The translations under genes were made by a program, and so were the position numbers. DNA of 34,564 bases from an uncultured Lentisphaerota bacterium (GTDB lineage: Bacteria; Verrucomicrobiota; Kiritimatiellia; RFP12; UBA1067). Positions 1,865-9,813 of this stretch are shown one piece after another (the first letter of the stretch is position 1; each line of letters starts with the position of its first letter). Location of the stretch: the NCBI GenBank assembly GCA_900321575.1, contig ONWT01000110.1:1-34564 (forward strand), read 5' to 3'. The notes below the pieces were generated by a model. It did not search any database and was not told the origin of the DNA. It saw only the letters and a program-made list of their open reading frames with translations.

Positions 1865-1980
1865 TTAATGGGCACCTGCACGGACTTGATAGGTTGTGCC
1901 AATATAGAGTATTGTAGTGCCATCCGCTGGTATTTGAAAAGTCTTCGCATATTCTTTTGCCCATTCCCAGGGAGACGCGA
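1865..1980 (-). pseudogene. Possible C-terminal fragment of a degraded protein gene
   Basis: On the minus strand one frame reads about 37 residues of normal-looking protein (SPWEWAKEYAKTFQIPADG, then TTILYIGTTYQVRAGAH) ending at a TAA at 1865-1867. It has no start codon of its own, and the same frame runs upstream into the 22-bp repeat array, where a 22-bp period shifts the frame each unit and creates stops. It could be the surviving end of a gene cut off by the array. It could also be a chance open frame. Confidence 0.22.
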
Positions 1981-2134
1981 GAAGTCTACCGCGCCAGACT
2001 GACAAGTCTACCGCGCTAGACTGGGAAGTCTACCGCGCCGAACTGGGAAGTCTACCGCGGTAAACTTCATAATCTACCGCGCTAGACTTCGTAATCTACC
2101 GCGGTAGATTTCACAACCTGCCGCGCTAGACTTC
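1981..2134. repeat. Seven tandem 22-bp palindromic units
   Basis: Seven head-to-tail units start at 1981, 2003, 2025, 2047, 2069, 2091 and 2113, each exactly 22 bp with no spacers. The consensus is a perfect palindrome: GAAGTCTACCG followed by its reverse complement. By eye the units differ from it at 4, 4, 6, 1, 4, 3 and 6 positions. CCGCG at unit positions 9-13 is identical in all seven, and unit six contains the perfect 18-nt palindrome AATCTACCGCGGTAGATT. Units 1-3 end in GA or GG and units 4-7 in TC, so there are two subfamilies. A 22-bp pitch is about two helical turns, placing all centres on one DNA face. No coding frame runs through it. Confidence 0.93.
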
Positions 2135-2166
2135 ATCTTTCTTGCGGATAATCTGCATCACCCCTC

Positions 2167-2226
2167 TAACTGAAGTCAACATGTGCCGCGTTTGTTCGTG
2201 CGAACAACTAGGCGGAACGGCAGTTA
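2167..2226. other. Imperfect 60-nt hairpin with a TTGTTCG-TG-CGAACAA tip
   Basis: The outer arms TAACTG (2167-2172) and CAGTTA (2221-2226) are exact complements. The tip TTGTTCG (2192-2198) / CGAACAA (2201-2207) is a 7-bp stem with a 2-nt loop, and CCGC/GCGG segments can pair between them. The tip contains TGTTC-N4-GAACA (2193-2206), the form I recall as the verrucomicrobial LexA box. The outer arms resemble the R-box ends of an integron attC site. Neither reading is secure, because no SOS gene or integrase is adjacent. Confidence 0.4.
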
Positions 2227-2355: not shown

Positions 2356-3360
2356 ATGAACACAATAAGATATTGGACATCTCATGATAATAAGTCTTCG
2401 GCATATTGGAATGAGTGGTTTACCGCAACGTCTAGTGTGGTAAACCCACTAGAATTAGAGTTTTTGTATGATGAAAAGGCCCCTGATTATCTTTTTGTAA
2501 CAGAGCATATATACCATATTCCTCGGAGATTTAGAGAGTTTATTGAGTTAAACGATGGTCGTCGCATATCTGTTTTCGCAGGGGGCGAAGCGATTTCGCC
2601 TGATATGAATCTCTTTGACTATGCGTGTAGCTTTGATAAAACGCTGGTAAATGGAGACAGGTGTACCAGAAAGCCGCCATGTCTGTTCTTCAAGCATCAC
2701 ATATTCACACCATTAACTGAAGGATGTAAGGATGTTGTGTCAGAGCTGAAAAGTAAAACGGGTTTTTGCAACTTTATCTATTCTAATCCATCTGCCCACC
2801 CAAGACGTGATCAGTTGTTTTATGCAATTAGTCAATATAGGCAGGTAGACGCATTGGGACCACATCTAAATAATATAGGCAATAGGACTTCTCGAACATC
2901 GCATAACTGGCGAAGAATTCTTGTTGAGATGAAAAGACCTTATAAGTTTTCAATTGCTGCTGAAAATGCATGTTATGATGGATATGTGACAGAGAAGCTG
3001 ATATCTAGCTTTCAAGCACACACGATACCGATATATTGGGGTAGTCCTTCTGTCGCGGAAGAATTTAATCCAAAGGCCTTTATTAATGCCAATAAGTTAT
3101 CTGACGAGGAATTGATTGCTTTGGTCAAGAATATAGATGCGAATGATGAGTTGTGGTGTGAAATCGCTTCGCAACCTGCAATGACTAATGAACAGCAAGC
3201 AAATTTAGCCGTCGAAAGCGATCGGTTCGTAAAATTCAGTGCCGCTATATTCGATGCACGACCGCTAGAAGAAAAGAAGCGTGTGCCGGCAGGCTATTGG
3301 AATGATATTTATAAAAGATCGTTGATGAGGTGCGGCATGCCAAAATGGTTACGGTTTTGA
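2356..3360 (+). CDS. GT10 family alpha-1,3-type fucosyltransferase
   Basis: 334 residues, a usual size for bacterial GT10 enzymes. The family signature lies at about residues 198-240: an FSIAAENA block, then YVTEKL, then IPIYWGSP followed by FNPKAFI. This is the GDP-fucose-binding alpha-1,3-fucosyltransferase motif that also marks Helicobacter and animal FucTs. It should transfer L-fucose from GDP-fucose to a sugar of a surface glycan on the cytoplasmic side. There is no signal peptide or membrane helix. The gene is AT-rich relative to the housekeeping genes in this window, which suggests horizontal acquisition. Its 3' end overlaps the convergent ATP-grasp gene by 12 bp. Acceptor and linkage cannot be read from sequence. 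Confidence 0.92.
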   Translation: MNTIRYWTSHDNKSSAYWNEWFTATSSVVNPLELEFLYDEKAPDYLFVTEHIYHIPRRFREFIELNDGRRISVFAGGEAISPDMNLFDYACSFDKTLVNGDRCTRKPPCLFFKHHIFTPLTEGCKDVVSELKSKTGFCNFIYSNPSAHPRRDQLFYAISQYRQVDALGPHLNNIGNRTSRTSHNWRRILVEMKRPYKFSIAAENACYDGYVTEKLISSFQAHTIPIYWGSPSVAEEFNPKAFINANKLSDEELIALVKNIDANDELWCEIASQPAMTNEQQANLAVESDRFVKFSAAIFDARPLEEKKRVPAGYWNDIYKRSLMRCGMPKWLRF

Positions 3361-4302
3361 TTCTGGCAGTTTAAGCAATTCACCTAAACGATAATCCCAT
3401 TCAACTGGTTCAAAAGGCGTCATGCCGGCAAAGTGACAAAATGTCAATTCGCCAACTCTAAGTTGTGTGCCATCTACATAGAAGTCTACTCTTACAAAAG
3501 GGAATCGCGTTGCAAGTTTGCGGGCAACGCACAGCATTTCATTCCACTGTGGAGGTTTTGCAATCTCTGATTTGTTCACATTATAATGCTGCTTTATCGA
3601 AAGTCTCTCAAAGTTGGAAGAAAAGAATGTAAATGTCAGTTGCGCGTGTCCTTTATGTCTATTCTGCGCAATGAACATATTCAACGGCTCGCCGTTGTAG
3701 CAAAAGAACTTGTAGTCTGGCAAATCTCCGCATGCTTCAATGTATTTCTCTGCAACAATTTGCGGTTTTATCCCTTTGTAGCACCATTCAAAGAAATCAT
3801 AATAGTGATTGGACGAGGGACTCATCCAATCGTGAAGTTTCTTTTTGGTCGCCTCAACATCAAGATGGCTTTTGTCGGTACAGATTATGTTCTGTCCCGA
3901 ACCCCAATTAACTTTTAAGACAAACTTATTTGGCAAAGAGTTAAAATCTATGTCGTCTACATCTTCGTATACGCCTATAACAGGGACAAGATATTCCGCT
4001 CCAACCGTTTTCGAGATGTAGTCGCGAACCAATACCTTGTCGGCACATGTTTTGATAAGAGGATCATGGTAGTTTAAGTTTAGCCATTGGAGCTTCTCAT
4101 TAAAGCTTTTGGGATGAATTAGATCGGGAGAATACCCAACTGATTTTCTAAACATGCTGGATATGCAATATTCAATTTGCTTTTTTGTGAGACCTCTAAA
4201 TCTGTTTGCGTATAACCATGCGAATTTTGGTGAATGCCGGAAGCAATTGGCACAAAAGGACAAGGTATGGCGAAGAGGCTTGATTAGTTTGTCTTTCTGC
4301 AT
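3349..4302 (-). CDS. TupA-like ATP-grasp protein of polysaccharide gene clusters
   Basis: 317 residues. Diagnostic blocks are SFNEKLQWL (about 65), the ADKVLVRDYI stretch (about 86), FVLKVNWGSGQNI (about 127), VAEKYIE (about 179), DYKFFCYNGEP (about 191), and FVRVDFYVDG followed by GELTF near the C-terminus. These match the TupA-like ATPgrasp family (named after a teichuronopeptide synthesis protein), common in capsule and O-antigen clusters. ATP-grasp enzymes couple a carboxylate to an amine or other nucleophile through an acyl-phosphate, so an amide-linked amino acid or similar decoration is plausible; the substrate is unknown. It is second in a minus-strand pair, 29 bp behind the DUF616 gene, and AT-rich like its neighbours. 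Confidence 0.85.
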   Translation of the reverse strand: MQKDKLIKPLRHTLSFCANCFRHSPKFAWLYANRFRGLTKKQIEYCISSMFRKSVGYSPDLIHPKSFNEKLQWLNLNYHDPLIKTCADKVLVRDYISKTVGAEYLVPVIGVYEDVDDIDFNSLPNKFVLKVNWGSGQNIICTDKSHLDVEATKKKLHDWMSPSSNHYYDFFEWCYKGIKPQIVAEKYIEACGDLPDYKFFCYNGEPLNMFIAQNRHKGHAQLTFTFFSSNFERLSIKQHYNVNKSEIAKPPQWNEMLCVARKLATRFPFVRVDFYVDGTQLRVGELTFCHFAGMTPFEPVEWDYRLGELLKLPESKP

Positions 4303-4331
4303 TAGAACACCCCGCTTTTAAGATATGTTTT

Positions 4332-5207
4332 TCAAGTTTTGCGCCTATGCGGAAATACACAGAAGTCATTTGCAAGGAATCTGGCATTTGGAATGGAAAT
4401 GTCTGATATTTGCATTCCGTTTTTCCACAACAACCATGCCAAAGACAGTTGGTCCCTACGAGAGTATTTTTCTATCATTTCCCACCATTCGCGCATCATG
4501 GCAATTACTGATGGTTCGTTGTGGCGCCTGTACAGAATGCCGTTTTCGGTCAGGCCATAGTTTTTCGGCATCCCAGACGATGAGACGAGCCTTCGCTCTT
4601 GAAGAATCTTTCTAGGGTTGTCGAGGAACTCCGACAGAACAAAATCAAACTCTTGGTAGATGCAATTACGCGTCGGATGTCTAGGTAAAATGAAAGGCAT
4701 GCCGATATCACGGATGGCATTAAAGAGGTAGGGTGAAAGTATATCGATGTTTGCATCAATATATATGCTCTCATTGTATTCGGGAAACAATACATGAGGA
4801 TGCATTTTGTGCCAACGATTATTTCTGGTGTTGTCGAGCTGATTAAAGGCTAAAGGCTTGATTTCCCAAATCCCAATATGCCCGGCTGCAATGTCCTCAG
4901 CATCATCCGTAAAGCATATATAATCCCAATCTGGATTTATATATCCAGGGCAAGCGATTTCCCTTATGTCATCATAGCCATTTGTGATGCAGGTATATAT
5001 GACAGAGGATGCTTTGCGTGTTTTTTTGTTGGCAAGATAGCTGTTTATGGCCTGGTTGTCGATGCGTCGCACATGCGTCGCTTTAGGTAGTAGCTTGGCA
5101 GTCTCTGTGTAGTAAGACTTTCCCCTTATCCAAAAAGGGAAATCTCTTTTAAGTCTATACCATATACCCCATGGTGAGGAAAGATAAGTCTTGATTCGAA
5201 GTTTCAT
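4332..5207 (-). CDS. DUF616-family glycosyltransferase-like protein
   Basis: About 291 residues from the preferred start. The core has YTCITNGYDD (about residue 70), DWDYICFTDD (about 92), NRWHKMHPH and YIDANIDI, the last a DxD-like nucleotide-sugar/metal motif, then QLSLAWLLWK. These are features of the DUF616 family, annotated in many surface-glycan clusters as glycosyltransferase-domain proteins. I place the start at ATG 5207. The upstream in-frame ATG at 5237 lies inside TGATACAAT, a copy of the promoter element found inverted at 5307-5315, so that segment is more likely promoter than coding. A weak AGGA before 5237 keeps the longer form possible. Donor and acceptor are unknown. Confidence 0.8.
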   Translation of the reverse strand: MKLRIKTYLSSPWGIWYRLKRDFPFWIRGKSYYTETAKLLPKATHVRRIDNQAINSYLANKKTRKASSVIYTCITNGYDDIREIACPGYINPDWDYICFTDDAEDIAAGHIGIWEIKPLAFNQLDNTRNNRWHKMHPHVLFPEYNESIYIDANIDILSPYLFNAIRDIGMPFILPRHPTRNCIYQEFDFVLSEFLDNPRKILQERRLVSSSGMPKNYGLTENGILYRRHNEPSVIAMMREWWEMIEKYSRRDQLSLAWLLWKNGMQISDISIPNARFLANDFCVFPHRRKT

Positions 5208-5227
5208 TGCTAGATGTAATTTACAAT

Positions 5228-5236
5228 ATTGTATCA
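5228..5236 (-). promoter_or_regulatory. Extended -10 promoter for the minus-strand DUF616/ATP-grasp pair
   Basis: Read on the minus strand this is TGATACAAT, an extended -10 (TG-N-hexamer). A start about 7 nt downstream would leave roughly a 14-nt leader before ATG 5207. The same 11-nt string TGATACAATAT occurs facing away at 5307-5317. Confidence 0.5.
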
Positions 5237-5261
5237 TATTATTCCTACGTGATGTGTGATG

Positions 5262-5281
5262 AAATTACTATTCGGTAATTT
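5262..5281. repeat. Inverted repeat between divergent promoters
   Basis: AAATTAC (5262-5268) and GTAATTT (5275-5281) are exact complements separated by 6 nt. The repeat lies centrally between the two outward-facing TGATACAAT elements. It could be an operator for a shared regulator or just a chance AT-rich palindrome. Confidence 0.35.
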
Positions 5282-5306
5282 TATTTAACCATGATCAAGT
5301 AAAATT

Positions 5307-5315
5307 TGATACAAT
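5307..5315 (+). promoter_or_regulatory. Extended -10 promoter for the GT4/DUF5672 pair
   Basis: TGATACAAT is an extended -10 element facing right and the mirror image of the one at 5228-5236. A start near 5322 would give about a 38-nt leader to the ATG at 5360. This is why the in-frame TTG at 5306 is rejected as a start. Confidence 0.5.
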
Positions 5316-5359
5316 ATAAAGAAATTCAAAAAAGATGGAAGTTGTTGCCAGCGAGCTAT

Positions 5360-6610
5360 ATGATGCCGCGTATTAGAGAAATGATTGAAAAGGTTCGTGT
5401 GTGGGGGTTGACGGGAATCGTCAATTTCTTCAAGAGGGAATATGCATTTAGGATTCAGCGTCGTCGGCTTGAACGGCTTGCGCGAAAATCCAAAGCCGCG
5501 ATCCAAGTGCGTGGTATAACCGTGATTGGTGATATAACGTCAAGGGTTTCGTTGAGCAAAACTTTGCGGGACTTCATTCTTGATTTGAGAGACGCTGGCG
5601 TACCATGTCAGTCGTATGACACATGTTTAAGGCCAGAGATTCCGCCGAAAGATTCCGTGCGCGTTGTGACACCTCCTGGCGAATTTGATCTTCATCGCTA
5701 CTCACACATTGTCATGATGTATCGTAGCCCTTTGCCGAAGGATGCCGGAGTCGGCCATGTTTGCGCGAGAATCGCGTTCCATGACAGTGAGCACGGTGTT
5801 CACGATACGATGCCGTTTTTGCGAGAGAGCGGCGACGCGATAATCGCAATGTCGGACTTCAACTACAACTACTTCAAGATGGCATTTGTCAACCAGCCAG
5901 TTTACAAGATAACATATCCATTTCGTTTCAAGTCAAGAGTGGCTACACCCCGCGAGGAGTTGCGCAAAAAGTATGGCATTTCGCTGGATGATTTTGTCGT
6001 GTTCTTCAACTTTGACTTTGGTTCATATTACCGCAAGAACATCCCTGCCGCGCTAAATGCCTTTGCGTTAGCATTTAAGGGCGATGCAAAGGCTAAACTG
6101 CTTTTCAAGACAAAGGGGGCGAAAGAAAACCCAAGACAGTTCTCGGAAATGATGCGGCTTGTCGCGACGCTAGGAATCGGCAATCAGTTTGTACATGTTG
6201 CTAATTATCTTCCAAGGGCAGACGTTGACGGCCTTACTTCCGCATGCGACGTGTATATGTCGCTTCACAAATCGGAAGGTTTTGGAATAGGAATGGCCGA
6301 GGCCATGAGCCAGGGCAAGCCTGTTGTCGCAACAAACTGGAGCGCAAATACTGAGTTCTGCAAAGAGGATACTGCATGGCTTGTCCCATATGACATGGTG
6401 CCGATTCTACCGCATGAATATCCACCTTCCATGGTCGAATGGGCGAGCGCGGATGTTTCTGTCGCGGCGAAGATGCTTCGTGAGATACGTAGCAAACCAG
6501 ATGTGGTGCGAAAAAGAGCCGAGTTGGGCCGACGTTTCATAAAAGAGCGATATTCTATTGAACGGTTCAAGTCCGATGTTGATCGTTTTTTAGATAGTGG
6601 CGTAGAATGA
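5360..6610 (+). CDS. GT4 (group 1) glycosyltransferase
   Basis: About 416 residues from ATG 5360. The C-terminal GT-B domain is clear: LFKTKGAKENPRQ, VANYLPRADV (about 280), SCDVYMSLHKSEGFG (about 295), then MAEAMSQGKPVVATNWSAN, which carries the EX7E-like nucleotide-sugar-binding motif of GT4 retaining enzymes. It would add a sugar from a nucleotide donor to a growing surface glycan in the cytoplasm. Its stop overlaps the ATG of the next gene (ATGA), so the two are probably translated together. The 5' part is AT-rich and the composition rises toward the genome norm along the gene. Specificity cannot be told. Confidence 0.88.
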   Translation: MMPRIREMIEKVRVWGLTGIVNFFKREYAFRIQRRRLERLARKSKAAIQVRGITVIGDITSRVSLSKTLRDFILDLRDAGVPCQSYDTCLRPEIPPKDSVRVVTPPGEFDLHRYSHIVMMYRSPLPKDAGVGHVCARIAFHDSEHGVHDTMPFLRESGDAIIAMSDFNYNYFKMAFVNQPVYKITYPFRFKSRVATPREELRKKYGISLDDFVVFFNFDFGSYYRKNIPAALNAFALAFKGDAKAKLLFKTKGAKENPRQFSEMMRLVATLGIGNQFVHVANYLPRADVDGLTSACDVYMSLHKSEGFGIGMAEAMSQGKPVVATNWSANTEFCKEDTAWLVPYDMVPILPHEYPPSMVEWASADVSVAAKMLREIRSKPDVVRKRAELGRRFIKERYSIERFKSDVDRFLDSGVE

Positions 6611-7434
6611 GTGCCGCTGCAAATGATATAGCCGCCAATGGCAAGGTCAGTCTGCGGAAGTGGCAACTAGAGCGATTGCCAGTTCTTCGTGAGACGCGAT
6701 TTCTTGTATCTAATCATTTTGATGATGTTACGATAGTTGCGTATTCCTTCCCTGCAGAAGGCGATGAAGATGCTTTTGACTTTTTAGAGTGTTCCATATT
6801 GCAGAGCTGGGCTGTTCTCGGGATGTTAAAGGCAACGATTGTGTCAAATCGACGATTCCCCAAGGTTGATGCATTCGCCGAGGCGCATGCCGACTGGGTC
6901 GATGTTCAGATTGAGCCGTCGCTGGTTCCTGGAAGGATTGAGTCGATGAGTGCAGATTGCGATGGTCGCTTGCATTCCCGCTTCAATACACCATATTGCC
7001 TTGTTGTGCAGGACGATGGCTTCCCTCTTAAAAACAATCTTGATGAGTTTCTTGGTAAGTATGACTACGTGGGCGCGCCATATGTCCGAATCGCGTGGTG
7101 GCGTTCTGTTATTTGCGCCTTGCTTGGGATGTGGGTTTCCAACGGTGGCTTCTCCTTGAGGTCTAAGCGGATATGCGAGGCTGCGGCGTATTGGTGGGAA
7201 CGGAAATACAAATCATGTCATCCTAGCGAGAAGACTATTGATGACCTTTACTACACTAGGACATTGCCGCTTCGACATTTGTCGTATAGAATCAAATACA
7301 AAATCGCAAATCACCGAACAGCCCTTCGCTTTTCGTACGACGATATAGTTTGTCAGCCAATCACGGTAAAACCTTTTGGATTTCACCGAGCTTCGACATT
7401 CGAGTTGTTAAGGCAGAAGTTTCCTGATATGTGA
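6607..7434 (+). CDS. DUF5672-family glycosyltransferase-like protein
   Basis: 275 residues. The recognisable segment is FNTPYCLVVQDDGFPL (about 120), then KYDYVGAPY (about 143) and WVSNGGFSLRSKR (about 170), the pattern of DUF5672 proteins encoded in glycan clusters and regarded as GT-A-like glycosyltransferases. The QDDG acid pair may bind metal and nucleotide sugar. No membrane helix or signal peptide is present. It begins at an ATG overlapping the GT4 stop by 4 bp. It is followed by the REP-like region rather than by another glycan gene. Confidence 0.75.
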   Translation: MSAAANDIAANGKVSLRKWQLERLPVLRETRFLVSNHFDDVTIVAYSFPAEGDEDAFDFLECSILQSWAVLGMLKATIVSNRRFPKVDAFAEAHADWVDVQIEPSLVPGRIESMSADCDGRLHSRFNTPYCLVVQDDGFPLKNNLDEFLGKYDYVGAPYVRIAWWRSVICALLGMWVSNGGFSLRSKRICEAAAYWWERKYKSCHPSEKTIDDLYYTRTLPLRHLSYRIKYKIANHRTALRFSYDDIVCQPITVKPFGFHRASTFELLRQKFPDM

Positions 7435-7439
7435 TAAGA

Positions 7440-7458
7440 ACCGTTACTGTGAAACGGT
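7440..7458. repeat. Short hairpin after the DUF5672 gene
   Basis: ACCGTT (7440-7445) and AACGGT (7453-7458) form a 6-bp stem with a 7-nt loop, 5 nt after the stop codon. No T-run follows, so it is at best a weak transcription terminator. It may instead belong to the REP-like element. Confidence 0.35.
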
Positions 7459-7480
7459 AGTAGCCGTTTCTGCTTCCGTA

Positions 7481-7497
7481 ATGGCTGCGGGCGCCAT
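7481..7497. repeat. REP-like hairpin
   Basis: ATGGC (7481-7485) and GCCAT (7493-7497) form a stem around a 7-nt loop. The loop region carries CTGCGGGCG, shared with the hairpin at 7701-7729. Confidence 0.4.
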
Positions 7498-7505
7498 CGC
7501 GTTAC

Positions 7506-7631
7506 CTACTGCGGCAAGTATCGAGAAGCAATTTTTCCGCTATCGCTTTCGCTAGGGCGCGGGTGGGTAGTGGCGGTTATGAAATAAAAGCCGCGGCCGA
7601 CGTAGTCATGCTCTTTTAGGCGATGGTTCAT
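7506..7631 (-). pseudogene. Truncated N-terminus of a REP-associated Y1 transposase (RAYT)
   Basis: The minus-strand ATG at 7629-7631 overlaps the stop of the upstream glycosyltransferase-like gene (ATGA). The frame runs 41 codons to a TAG at 7506-7508. Residues 5-22, LKEHDYVGRGFYFITATT, match the opening of RAYT/IS200-like Y1 transposases, which typically begin with a basic residue, then DYDY, a Gly, YF-(V/I)T and a short beta strand. The rest of the normally 150-250-residue protein, including the HUH and catalytic Tyr motifs, is absent. Identification rests on this one motif, so a random small ORF remains possible. Confidence 0.45.
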
Positions 7632-8509
7632 TTCGAGCCCCCTGCAGGCTGGGGCTCGCTACCTACCGCAGTAGTTGCAATTGCAGGAAGGCTGGTTGAT
7701 AGGGAGGCGCCGCCTGCGGGCGTCTCCTTTGCCCCTAGGTCGAAGCGGTTTTGGGCCCTAACCAGAAGCGTGGTTGGAACTATTCTGAATATCAGCCCCT
7801 TAACTCCTTCGATAAGGCGAATCTTGAATGGCGGGAGCGTTCTGGTTATGCCAGTAAGGTCGATGTTGTTTTCGCGGCAGACATCCAGGCCGAACTTTTC
7901 CCAGTAGCCTTTATGTACGGCATCCACGAAAGGGAACTCTTTTGTTTGCGTGACGAGAAGAGGGCGCTTTTCATCCCCTACCATAAAAGAACCATATCGC
8001 TCGAATTCCCATGCGCTCTTGTTGCGCCTTGCCAGCGCGAGCAGGAAATTCCGATTCCAGATACTTGTCTGGCAAGTTACGCAGTACGCTTTGTTCTTGG
8101 GCATCTCCAGCAAATCGCTGCCGTCGACAATGCGTTCTCCAGGCGGAAGCGGATTGAGCCGAAGACTGGCGGAATCATATTGTTTTGCTTCATTTAGGCG
8201 CAACAGAAAGCGTGCCGTGTCGACAGGCTCCGAAAGAAAGTAGTCGTTCATCAACATCAGCACATAGGGCGACTCTATCTTCTCCAATGCCTCGGCCAGC
8301 ATCTCGCACCATGTCTTTCCGCGTCCTGTGAGGATGGCGCGATCGAATCCCTCGGTGGCAATCGTTTCGGAAAGCAGTGTAGTTTCGAATGGACAATCCG
8401 GCCAAAATTTGCGCCAAAGGGCAATGAATGGCTTTTCGACATCATTGTATTTGTCGCACGAGCAGACGAGGACAGTGCAGTCGTGGTTTTTTATTTTGGG
8501 CATTTCCAT
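7628..8509 (-). CDS. Glycosyltransferase-like protein of a capsule/O-antigen cluster family
   Basis: About 293 residues from ATG 8509 (ATG 8503 is equally possible). The N-terminal half resembles a family often seen in glycan clusters: VLVCSCDKYND (residue ~14), WRKFWPDCPFE, GRGKTWCEMLAEAL, then YVLMLMNDYFLSEPVDT (~80), where an acid pair precedes YFL as in GT-A folds. I know no firm name. The start overlaps the flippase 3' end by 19 bp, so the two are coupled. The last ~33 residues, rich in Ala/Thr/Pro/Gly, are encoded by REP-like hairpins at 7634-7658 and 7701-7729 and do not look like part of the original protein. The longer upstream reading frame is only antisense to the flippase. Confidence 0.7.
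   Translation of the reverse strand: MEMPKIKNHDCTVLVCSCDKYNDVEKPFIALWRKFWPDCPFETTLLSETIATEGFDRAILTGRGKTWCEMLAEALEKIESPYVLMLMNDYFLSEPVDTARFLLRLNEAKQYDSASLRLNPLPPGERIVDGSDLLEMPKNKAYCVTCQTSIWNRNFLLALARRNKSAWEFERYGSFMVGDEKRPLLVTQTKEFPFVDAVHKGYWEKFGLDVCRENNIDLTGITRTLPPFKIRLIEGVKGLIFRIVPTTLLVRAQNRFDLGAKETPAGGASLSTSLPAIATTAVGSEPQPAGGSK
7634..7658. repeat. REP-like hairpin overlapping a gene end
   Basis: CGAGCCCC (7634-7641) and GGGGCTCG (7651-7658) form a perfect 8-bp stem with a 9-nt loop containing CTGCAG. It lies inside the last codons of the minus-strand glycosyltransferase-like gene and just before the transposase fragment. Confidence 0.7.
7701..7729. repeat. REP-like hairpin inside a coding tail
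   Basis: GGAGGCGCC (7703-7711) pairs with GGCGTCTCC (7719-7727) with one G-T wobble, extendable by two more pairs. It lies inside the 3' part of the minus-strand gene, where it encodes a Pro/Ala/Gly-rich stretch. Confidence 0.65.
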
Positions 8510-9813
8510 ATCATCAGAGCAAGCCGCAATACGCCGATGCCCGTCAGCCACCAGAGCATTGCGGGGAGCGTTGTTATGTTGTGGACAGCGAGGAAGTTCG
8601 CCACGCTTGGCGGCAGCCACGACACGAAGTATCCGTAGCCCGTGACGCAAAGCAAGAGCACGGCGTTCAAAAGGTTGAGTGGAATCAGCCATTTGAGGTA
8701 ACCGAAGCGTTCCGCCGATATCGCGGCTGTCGTGTAAAGGCCCACAACGCATGCAAGGGCGGTGATTCCTGTTTGCCACGGTATGGCCCACCAATAGGCG
8801 GAATACTGTTCGCCGTGCGGCAAAAGCCGCAAAACCGGTTCGCCTATGAAAAAGAACGGCACGGCCACAAGGCCGCAGAAAGCCAGCGTCGCGGCCGAAG
8901 CCTTAAGCAGCAGCGGCCGCATATCCTTGCCTTTCGCCGCGAGTTCCGCAGTGAAGGGGAATATCGTGAAGACCAGCGTGGCATTCAGAAATGTTGCGAT
9001 TTCCGAAAAGCGGGTAGCCATATAGTAGCCTGCCGAATCAAGATCGGGCAATCTTTGCCGCAAAACTGTCGTTTCGACAAGAGAGGATATTCCGGACGCG
9101 AGCGCACTGGCCGCAAAAACAAGGAAGAGCTTGAGGAACCGTCTTACGACCGTCTTGTTCCAGTAAGGCTCGGGTTTCGCCGACAACTCTTTTCTCAGAC
9201 AAAACACCGAGGCTGCCATATTGAAGATAGGCGTGACCGACTGTCCGACGAAATAGCCTGAAAGTGCGCGAAAAGGCATCGTGACAAGCATGGCCACAAG
9301 CCTTATCGGCGCGGCTATTACATTTATCATGGAGTATTGGCGAAACTTCTTGAGCGATTGCATCGCGTTGAGGTATATCGGCGAGACGGTCCCGACAAAC
9401 GCGGCGAACAATATCAGAATGCCGAGGGAGCCTTCGACGATTCTAATTCTTTCAAGGAATAGCGGCAGCATGAAGCGCGAAGCGACGATCGCGATGAAGA
9501 GAAATACGGCCGCAGAGACAAACACGCCGCGCATCAGCGTTTTCAGCTTGCCGAATTCGCGCGACACGGTCAGGCGCGTCAATTCATTGCGGAAAGTGTT
9601 GGCGAAGACTGCGACGGGGAGGGCCAGAAAGTTTGCGAAGTTCGCGAGCGGCATCACCGCGCCAAGCTCGGAGGGGGCCACGTACTTCGGCACGAGCCAC
9701 AGTCCGACGAAGGCGTTTAACAGATCAGCGGCGCGGCAGGCAATGAAAAGCATCAGCGAATACCACCAGAAATCGCCTAATTTCTCATGCAACCTATAAA
9801 GGAATCTTTTCAT
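8491..9813 (-). CDS. Wzx-like oligosaccharide flippase
   Basis: 440 residues with about 12 hydrophobic helices across the whole length and basic connecting loops, the layout of the MVF/polysaccharide-transport superfamily. The N-terminus (about 15-70) has a characteristic long first helix pair ending in NFANFLALPVAVFANTFRNELTR. It would flip lipid-linked glycan units from the cytoplasmic to the periplasmic face of the inner membrane, serving the glycosyltransferases of this island. Its promoter lies almost on top of the start codon, predicting a leader of about 5 nt. It overlaps the following gene by 19 bp. No polymerase (Wzy) or ligase is in the window. Confidence 0.85.
   Translation of the reverse strand: MKRFLYRLHEKLGDFWWYSLMLFIACRAADLLNAFVGLWLVPKYVAPSELGAVMPLANFANFLALPVAVFANTFRNELTRLTVSREFGKLKTLMRGVFVSAAVFLFIAIVASRFMLPLFLERIRIVEGSLGILILFAAFVGTVSPIYLNAMQSLKKFRQYSMINVIAAPIRLVAMLVTMPFRALSGYFVGQSVTPIFNMAASVFCLRKELSAKPEPYWNKTVVRRFLKLFLVFAASALASGISSLVETTVLRQRLPDLDSAGYYMATRFSEIATFLNATLVFTIFPFTAELAAKGKDMRPLLLKASAATLAFCGLVAVPFFFIGEPVLRLLPHGEQYSAYWWAIPWQTGITALACVVGLYTTAAISAERFGYLKWLIPLNLLNAVLLLCVTGYGYFVSWLPPSVANFLAVHNITTLPAMLWWLTGIGVLRLALMIWKCPK

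What the first reader, a model, noticed from the sequence alone, without database searches (positions are those of the whole stretch)
1981..2134. Seven contiguous 22-bp palindromic units at exact two-turn spacing
Each unit is a degenerate copy of one perfect 22-nt palindrome, and the seven follow each other without spacers. Conservation is strongest at the dyad centre (CCGCG invariant) and on the left arm. Two end-subfamilies (units 1-3 versus 4-7) suggest block duplication. The array sits exactly where GC-rich housekeeping DNA gives way to the AT-rich glycan island. It does not match CRISPR (no spacers) or REP structure that I know. Possible roles: a multi-site operator for a dimeric regulator, an integration or recombination site, or a phage/plasmid-type iteron.
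Basis: seen in the sequence. Interest (0 to 1): 0.75.

Follow-up and report, generated by a model that had tools for sequence, protein, structure and literature searches.

The report
Intergenic array of 22-bp palindromes
The seven back-to-back 22-letter palindromes are one copy of a short repeat scattered between genes in this gut bacterium and a sister species, and related species and some Bacteroidota carry unrelated palindromes in arrays of the same 22-letter step, which makes that step, not the sequence, the thing to explain.

Summary
In detail: seven contiguous 22-bp units at 1982-2135, each a degenerate copy of AAGTCTACCGCGSTAGACTT. It is not a private expansion. The same element occurs at two more places in this genome, at eight in one congeneric species (Kiritimatiellae bacterium RGIG1481, goat abomasum), and in none of about 57 other congeners. 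Copies share the order of their units, so complete elements were copied; arrays did not grow separately at each site. Both halves carry mirror-image linkers, and several copies share short flanking modules. It lies between unrelated genes. No operator, integrase, CRISPR, terminator or RAYT system was found. It works like BOX elements (Streptococcus) and BrickBuilt (Porphyromonas gingivalis): a short non-autonomous intergenic repeat with a tandem core. Its sequence was not compared with theirs.

The unexpected result lies outside the window. At one locus in congeners, and in random samples, unrelated palindromes recur in arrays of the same 22 (sometimes 23) bp step. Some are very numerous: G019 has about 335 tandem matches of its own family, Bacteroidota genomes G198 and G221 about 200 each of another. 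Arrays with other steps were mostly coding triplet multiples and not palindromic. The step looks constrained while the sequence is free. What sets the step, and what moves the elements, is not shown.

The parts
1982..2135 (+). Tandem core: seven contiguous 22-bp units, consensus AAGTCTACCGCGSTAGACTT plus 2 bp
   Evidence: homologous arrays at G000:C49, G000:C92 and eight G047 loci
1982..2047 (+). Left half, units 1-3, linkers of the TGACAA/TGGGAA type
2048..2069 (+). Central unit 4, where linker polarity flips
2070..2135 (+). Right half, units 5-7, linkers of the TTCATA/TTCGTA/TTCACA type, roughly the mirror image of the left half
1968..1981 (+). Possible 5' leader end (GGGAGACGCGAG, a decayed half unit); weak, boundaries inferred
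   Evidence: by comparison of the 5' flanks; inference
2136..2190 (+). Possible 3' tail module (TTGCGGATAATCTGCATCACCCCTCTAACTGAAGTCAA...), similar to the tails of G047 C46/C34b and, by eye, C19
   Evidence: BLAST match of G047 C46 to window 1985-2190 at 77%; alignment

Best explanation
The array is the core of a short, non-autonomous, dispersed intergenic repeat that works like BOX or BrickBuilt elements: a short leader, n x 22-bp palindromic units (one remnant of a single unit, otherwise 6-8 in this species pair) and a short tail. Shown: complete multi-unit elements with a conserved unit order were copied to several intergenic places in two sister species, and unit number differs between copies. 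Also shown: other congeners and some Bacteroidota carry unrelated palindromes in arrays of the same 22-23 bp step. Inferred: copies spread by an unidentified transposase acting in trans, helped in places by segmental duplication; unit number changes by slippage or unequal exchange; and the 22-bp step is kept because the palindromes act as a phased series, either protein dimers spaced two DNA turns apart or stacked hairpins in single-stranded DNA or RNA. Any effect on neighbouring genes is a by-product or a local co-option.
For: Dispersed copies: 3 arrays plus a single-unit remnant in the window's genome and 8 arrays in G047. Same-position units across copies are 80-90% identical against about 74% for other positions; permutation P = 0.04 for the window copy and 0.0002-0.007 for the other six. 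Species-restricted: none in the other congeners by tandem pattern beyond single chance-level hits or by BLAST, only these two genomes with arrays in 388 of the phylum, no match in the plasmid and phage collections. Intergenic beside unrelated genes. Short complementary flanks such as GCACCAAATAAGAA...TTCTTATTTGGTGC in one copy. Fixed step with free sequence: L192, L195, L197 at the M50 locus and random samples: 22 arrays of step 22/23 with a palindromic excess (Fisher P = 1.7e-6) against 21 arrays of other steps without (0.98). G019: about 335 tandem matches of its own family. G198 and G221: about 200 each, with leader- and tail-like flanks.
Against: No transposase was tied to the element, no empty site with a target-site duplication was found, and terminal repeats are short and imperfect. 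Two of the eight G047 copies share flanking host DNA with another copy (C33 with C8, C34b with C46), which is segmental duplication rather than clean transposition. The ordered array does not fold much better than unit-order permutations (mean z -0.8), so a long hairpin as the selected form is only weakly supported. The palindrome statistics pool arrays that are partly from the same family, and G019, G005 and G008 were sampled because they already showed arrays; in the eight species sampled without that bias only 1 array of step 22 and 3 of step 23 were found in 0.53 Mb.
Confidence: 0.77

Rival explanations
1. Multi-site operator or nucleoid-protein landing array: each 22-bp palindrome binds a protein dimer, two helical turns apart on one face, and the array serves gene regulation or DNA organisation.
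For: The exact two-turn step and palindromic units are what cooperative dimer arrays need. The step is kept across unrelated sequences. Many arrays lie upstream of a gene start (M50 locus in four species).
Against: Flanking genes have no common function. The family is absent from almost all congeners. Unit sequence differs completely between congeners, and one genome (G005) seems to hold several families, which a single sequence-specific protein would not tolerate.
Confidence: 0.13
2. Recombination or integration site for variable islands; arrays mark the borders of acquired DNA.
For: The window array borders a lower-GC glycan-gene island. Gene order breaks at or near the array at C8/C49, C34a and C55.
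Against: No integrase or recombinase was noted beside the arrays. The two species are about 75-80% identical, so gene order may break often anyway; no baseline was measured.
Confidence: 0.06
3. Passive minisatellite: hairpin-prone palindromes, perhaps old terminators, multiply by replication slippage at each site, and 22 bp is simply the size that hairpin slippage favours.
For: Unit number varies and identical neighbouring units occur (C8 has three identical units). Unrelated palindromes show the same step.
Against: Conserved unit order across dispersed copies shows that finished arrays were copied. No terminator-like site beside the window array.
Confidence: 0.1

Closest known systems
BrickBuilt MITE of Porphyromonas gingivalis (PMC4596501)
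   Same: Tandem units of 23 nt without spacers, leader and tail modules, variable unit number, 19 strictly intergenic copies, restricted to one or two sister species, predicted long stem-loops.
   Different: Other phylum, unit 22 bp and clearly palindromic here, fewer units (6-8), no long leader or tail, no IS5-like terminal repeats seen; sequences were not compared.
BOX elements of Streptococcus pneumoniae (PMC3049150)
   Same: Modular boxA-(boxB)n-boxC design with a variable tandem core, dispersed, folding into stem-loops, presumed non-autonomous.
   Different: Different phylum and module design; boxB is not described as a 22-bp palindrome (general knowledge: about 45 bp); sequences were not compared.
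REP / BIME / REPIN elements with RAYT transposases (PMC3733652, PMC3116915)
   Same: Short extragenic palindromes, clustered, species-restricted; this unit even contains GTAG internally.
   Different: Contiguous units at a fixed step, no end tag, and no RAYT-type gene next to an array.
Plasmid iterons (e.g. the 22-bp repeats of R6K, from general knowledge)
   Same: Contiguous 22-bp repeats.
   Different: Many chromosomal copies between ordinary genes, no initiator gene noted, units palindromic.

Membership tests
BrickBuilt MITE | Sequence similarity to the 23-nt repeat, leader or tail | not tested
   BrickBuilt sequence was not compared; the paper reports BLASTn matches only in Porphyromonas (PMC4596501)
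BrickBuilt MITE | Contiguous tandem units flanked by leader and tail, strictly intergenic, several dispersed copies | tested here: met
   (flanking modules short, seen in a subset of copies)
BrickBuilt MITE | IS5-like terminal inverted repeats (GAGACCTTTGCA type) | tested here: not met
   No such ends by eye next to the arrays; short complementary ends GCACC...GGTGC instead
MITE in general | Terminal inverted repeats and target-site duplications | tested here: inconclusive
   Short imperfect complementary ends in some copies; no duplication seen by eye; no empty site available
BOX element | boxA/boxB/boxC sequence | not tested
   Only the architecture was compared
REP/REPIN with RAYT | Dedicated Y1 (RAYT) transposase flanked by the repeats | tested here: not met
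   PF01797 not found in G000 and G192; two hits in G047 without units nearby; both drafts are incomplete
CRISPR array | Unique spacers between repeats | tested here: not met
   Units contiguous, no spacers
Intrinsic terminator | GC-rich hairpin followed by a T run | tested here: not met
   No terminator-like site in 1650-2420
Known structured RNA | Match to an Rfam family | tested here: not met
   No match in the window or seven array loci
Operator of one regulon | Arrays next to one gene family | tested here: not met
   Unrelated neighbours

The most novel reading that the evidence does not exclude
Palindrome arrays with a constant step of about 22 bp and freely changing sequence are a widespread, unrecognised class of bacterial intergenic element in at least two phyla (Kiritimatiellae in Verrucomicrobiota, and Bacteroidota). 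Each species renews its own family, and an unknown ruler (a two-turn protein-DNA spacing, or an RNA or single-stranded DNA hairpin stack) fixes the step. BrickBuilt would be one member.
Probability: 0.35. Interest if true: 0.75.

Novelty: new variant of a known kind. Interest (0 to 1): 0.55.

Why it matters
Species-specific intergenic repeats are usually described one at a time, by sequence. If their unit step is conserved while the sequence is not, then a common mechanism acts on the spacing, and it can be tested by counting steps across complete genomes. It would connect BOX-like and BrickBuilt-like elements, offer markers for uncultured rumen bacteria, and point to an unknown binding protein or copying machinery.

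Tried and rejected
Plasmid, phage and viral collections: no match to the array or its core; the one viral hit for the tandem pattern was a simple repeat. Exact tandem pattern in 84,980 species genomes: apart from the goat species and the Bacteroides MAG G192, single hits without a comparable array; Sporosarcina has a 21-bp array of another kind. RAYT link: not supported. Selected global hairpin: global pairing scores slightly above local pairing, but permuting unit order costs little stability, and linker mirror symmetry is not significant per element (one search used a window off by one and is void). Shared ancestry of the TCTACC...GGTAGA core between Kiritimatiellae and Bacteroides G192: left open; the hit came out of a very large search and the shared stretch is about 10 bp, so convergence is possible. 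Literature on a constant 22-bp step with changing sequence: none found in the held library; absence there is weak evidence.

Full report
Observation. The window holds seven contiguous 22-bp units at 1982-2135. The consensus is AAGTCTACCGCGSTAGACTT plus two linker bases. CCGCG is invariant and the left arm is better kept than the right. Self-match at lag 22 over the array is 107 of 132; 200 Markov simulations of the window never exceeded 61. The array lies between an RsbU-like SpoIIE phosphatase gene (66-1718) and a family-10 glycosyltransferase gene (2356-3360) that opens a run of glycan genes. The composition change begins at the end of the phosphatase gene, not at the array.

Relatives of the same family. 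In the window's genome (a draft of 1.44 Mb in 119 contigs, 82% complete) the unit recurs at C49 and C92, seven units each, and once as a single-unit remnant at C31. One other species of the genus, G047 (identified through its contigs as Kiritimatiellae bacterium RGIG1481 from goat abomasum), has eight arrays of 6-8 units. No other congener has the family, by tandem pattern (single chance-level hits only) or by BLAST with an array in the query. In a sample of 388 genomes of the phylum only these two show arrays.

Copies are copies of one ordered element. Units differ in their right arm and linker, and the types come in the same order in different copies. Same-position identity between elements is 0.80-0.90, other positions about 0.74; permuting the unit order of one element gives P = 0.04 for the window copy and 0.0002 to 0.007 for the other six elements compared (for C34a one duplicate unit was left out). 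Linkers in the left half are of the type TGRSAA and in the right half TTCNNA, roughly mirror images, with the flip at the central unit. One copy, C34a, has perfectly complementary ends GCACCAAATAAGAA and TTCTTATTTGGTGC. As single-stranded DNA the region folds far better than shuffles (z = -5.8), but most of this comes from the units themselves, since permuting their order costs little (mean z -0.8).

Context. The arrays lie in gaps between genes that have nothing in common: glutamine synthetase III, an M50 peptidase, a LysR regulator with an Na+/H+ antiporter, an alpha-amylase, an HU-like protein, an ORF6N protein, and others. There is no Rfam match and no terminator-like site next to the window array. 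Two pairs of G047 copies share host DNA: C33 shares about 310 bp of the glutamine synthetase 5' region with C8, and C34b carries pieces of the HU-like gene beside C46. Between the two species gene order breaks at or near the arrays at C8/C49, C34a and C55; the background rate of breaks was not measured.

A wider pattern. At the M50 peptidase locus, where G047 has array C34a, three other congeners have arrays of unrelated sequence and nearly the same step: G019 with CCAATGGGCATTGG (22 bp, seven units), G005 with TTCAATAGATG... (22 bp, four units, hardly palindromic) and G008 with CCTCGCGAGG (23 bp). Stretches of eleven congeners, four outgroups and several Bacteroidota were then scanned for tandem arrays of any step from 15 to 35 bp, together with the M50-locus loci. 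Of 43 arrays, 22 had a step of 22 or 23 bp; the other 21 were nearly all multiples of three, mostly in long open frames. The 22/23-bp arrays are palindromic beyond shuffles of their own units (Fisher P = 1.7e-6, 8 of 22 below 0.05), the others are not (0.98, 0 of 21). Two cautions: arrays of one family are not independent, and G019, G005 and G008 were chosen because they already showed arrays. Among the eight species sampled without that bias there was one array of step 22 and three of step 23 in 0.53 Mb, and the 22-bp one (G032) is palindromic at P = 0.05.

Some families are abundant. G019 has 335 tandem matches of its own family, both strands counted, and only one other congener has any (2). 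In Bacteroidota, G192 (an uncultured Bacteroides MAG) has about eight loci with 22-bp units sharing TCTACC...GGTAGA with the window family but with other linkers, and none of the other 198 genomes searched around it has them. G198 and G221 have about 200 tandem matches each of TTCTTTTGTACAAAAGAA at a 22-bp step, both strands counted; the fetched loci show mostly four units with similar leader- and tail-like flanks.

Reading. The window array is the core of a short dispersed intergenic repeat. Its design is closest to BrickBuilt of Porphyromonas gingivalis (23-nt units without spacers, leader and tail, 19 intergenic copies, limited to sister species; PMC4596501) and to BOX elements (PMC3049150). 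I do not file it as a member of either, because their sequences were not compared and BrickBuilt's terminal repeats were not seen. How it moves is inferred: no transposase was linked (Y1 transposases were not found in this draft genome and are not next to arrays in G047), and no empty site with a duplication was available. Why the step is 22 bp is open. Two turns of DNA for a phased protein array, or a stack of hairpins, are the obvious candidates, and neither is tested. The claim that the step is constrained while sequence is free is the most interesting outcome; it needs a genome-wide count on complete genomes.

Noticed in passing
window 2356-9813: Lower-GC run of glycan genes: a family-10 fucosyltransferase-like gene, a TupA-like ATP-grasp gene, a TOD1/MUCI70-like glycosyltransferase, a group 1 glycosyltransferase, a DUF5672 gene and a multi-pass membrane protein that looks like a polysaccharide flippase.
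   Followed up: partly
L020 4676-4735 (G000:C31, about 12690): Single-unit remnant of the element (TGCAACGCGTGAGAAGTCTGCCACGGTAGACTTCCCAGCAGTTGCG) shortly after a stop codon, with complementary ends TGCAAC/GTTGC.
   Followed up: partly
L192 1214-1373, L208 10479-10575, L214 204-346 and 14066-14214: G019, a congener, has a very abundant 22-bp palindromic array family CCAATGSSCATTGG, about 335 tandem matches in the genome.
   Followed up: partly
L273 1260-1348, L274 3101-3184, L313-L321: Two Bacteroidota genomes share a 22-bp family TTCTTTTGTACAAAAGAA, mostly four units per array, with similar flanks; some arrays lie on an 84-kb second contig.
   Followed up: partly
L112 506-1194: Sporosarcina sp. 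JAI121 has an array of about 33 copies of a 21-bp unit CGACCGTATCCCGCGGTAGAC.
   Followed up: no
L100 3344-3682 next to array C33: Truncated duplicate of the glutamine synthetase III start lies next to an array in G047, suggesting duplication of host DNA together with the element.
   Followed up: partly
L295 8012-8138 and 8345-8429: G032 has a 22-bp and a 23-bp palindromic array of different sequence about 200 bp apart.
   Followed up: no
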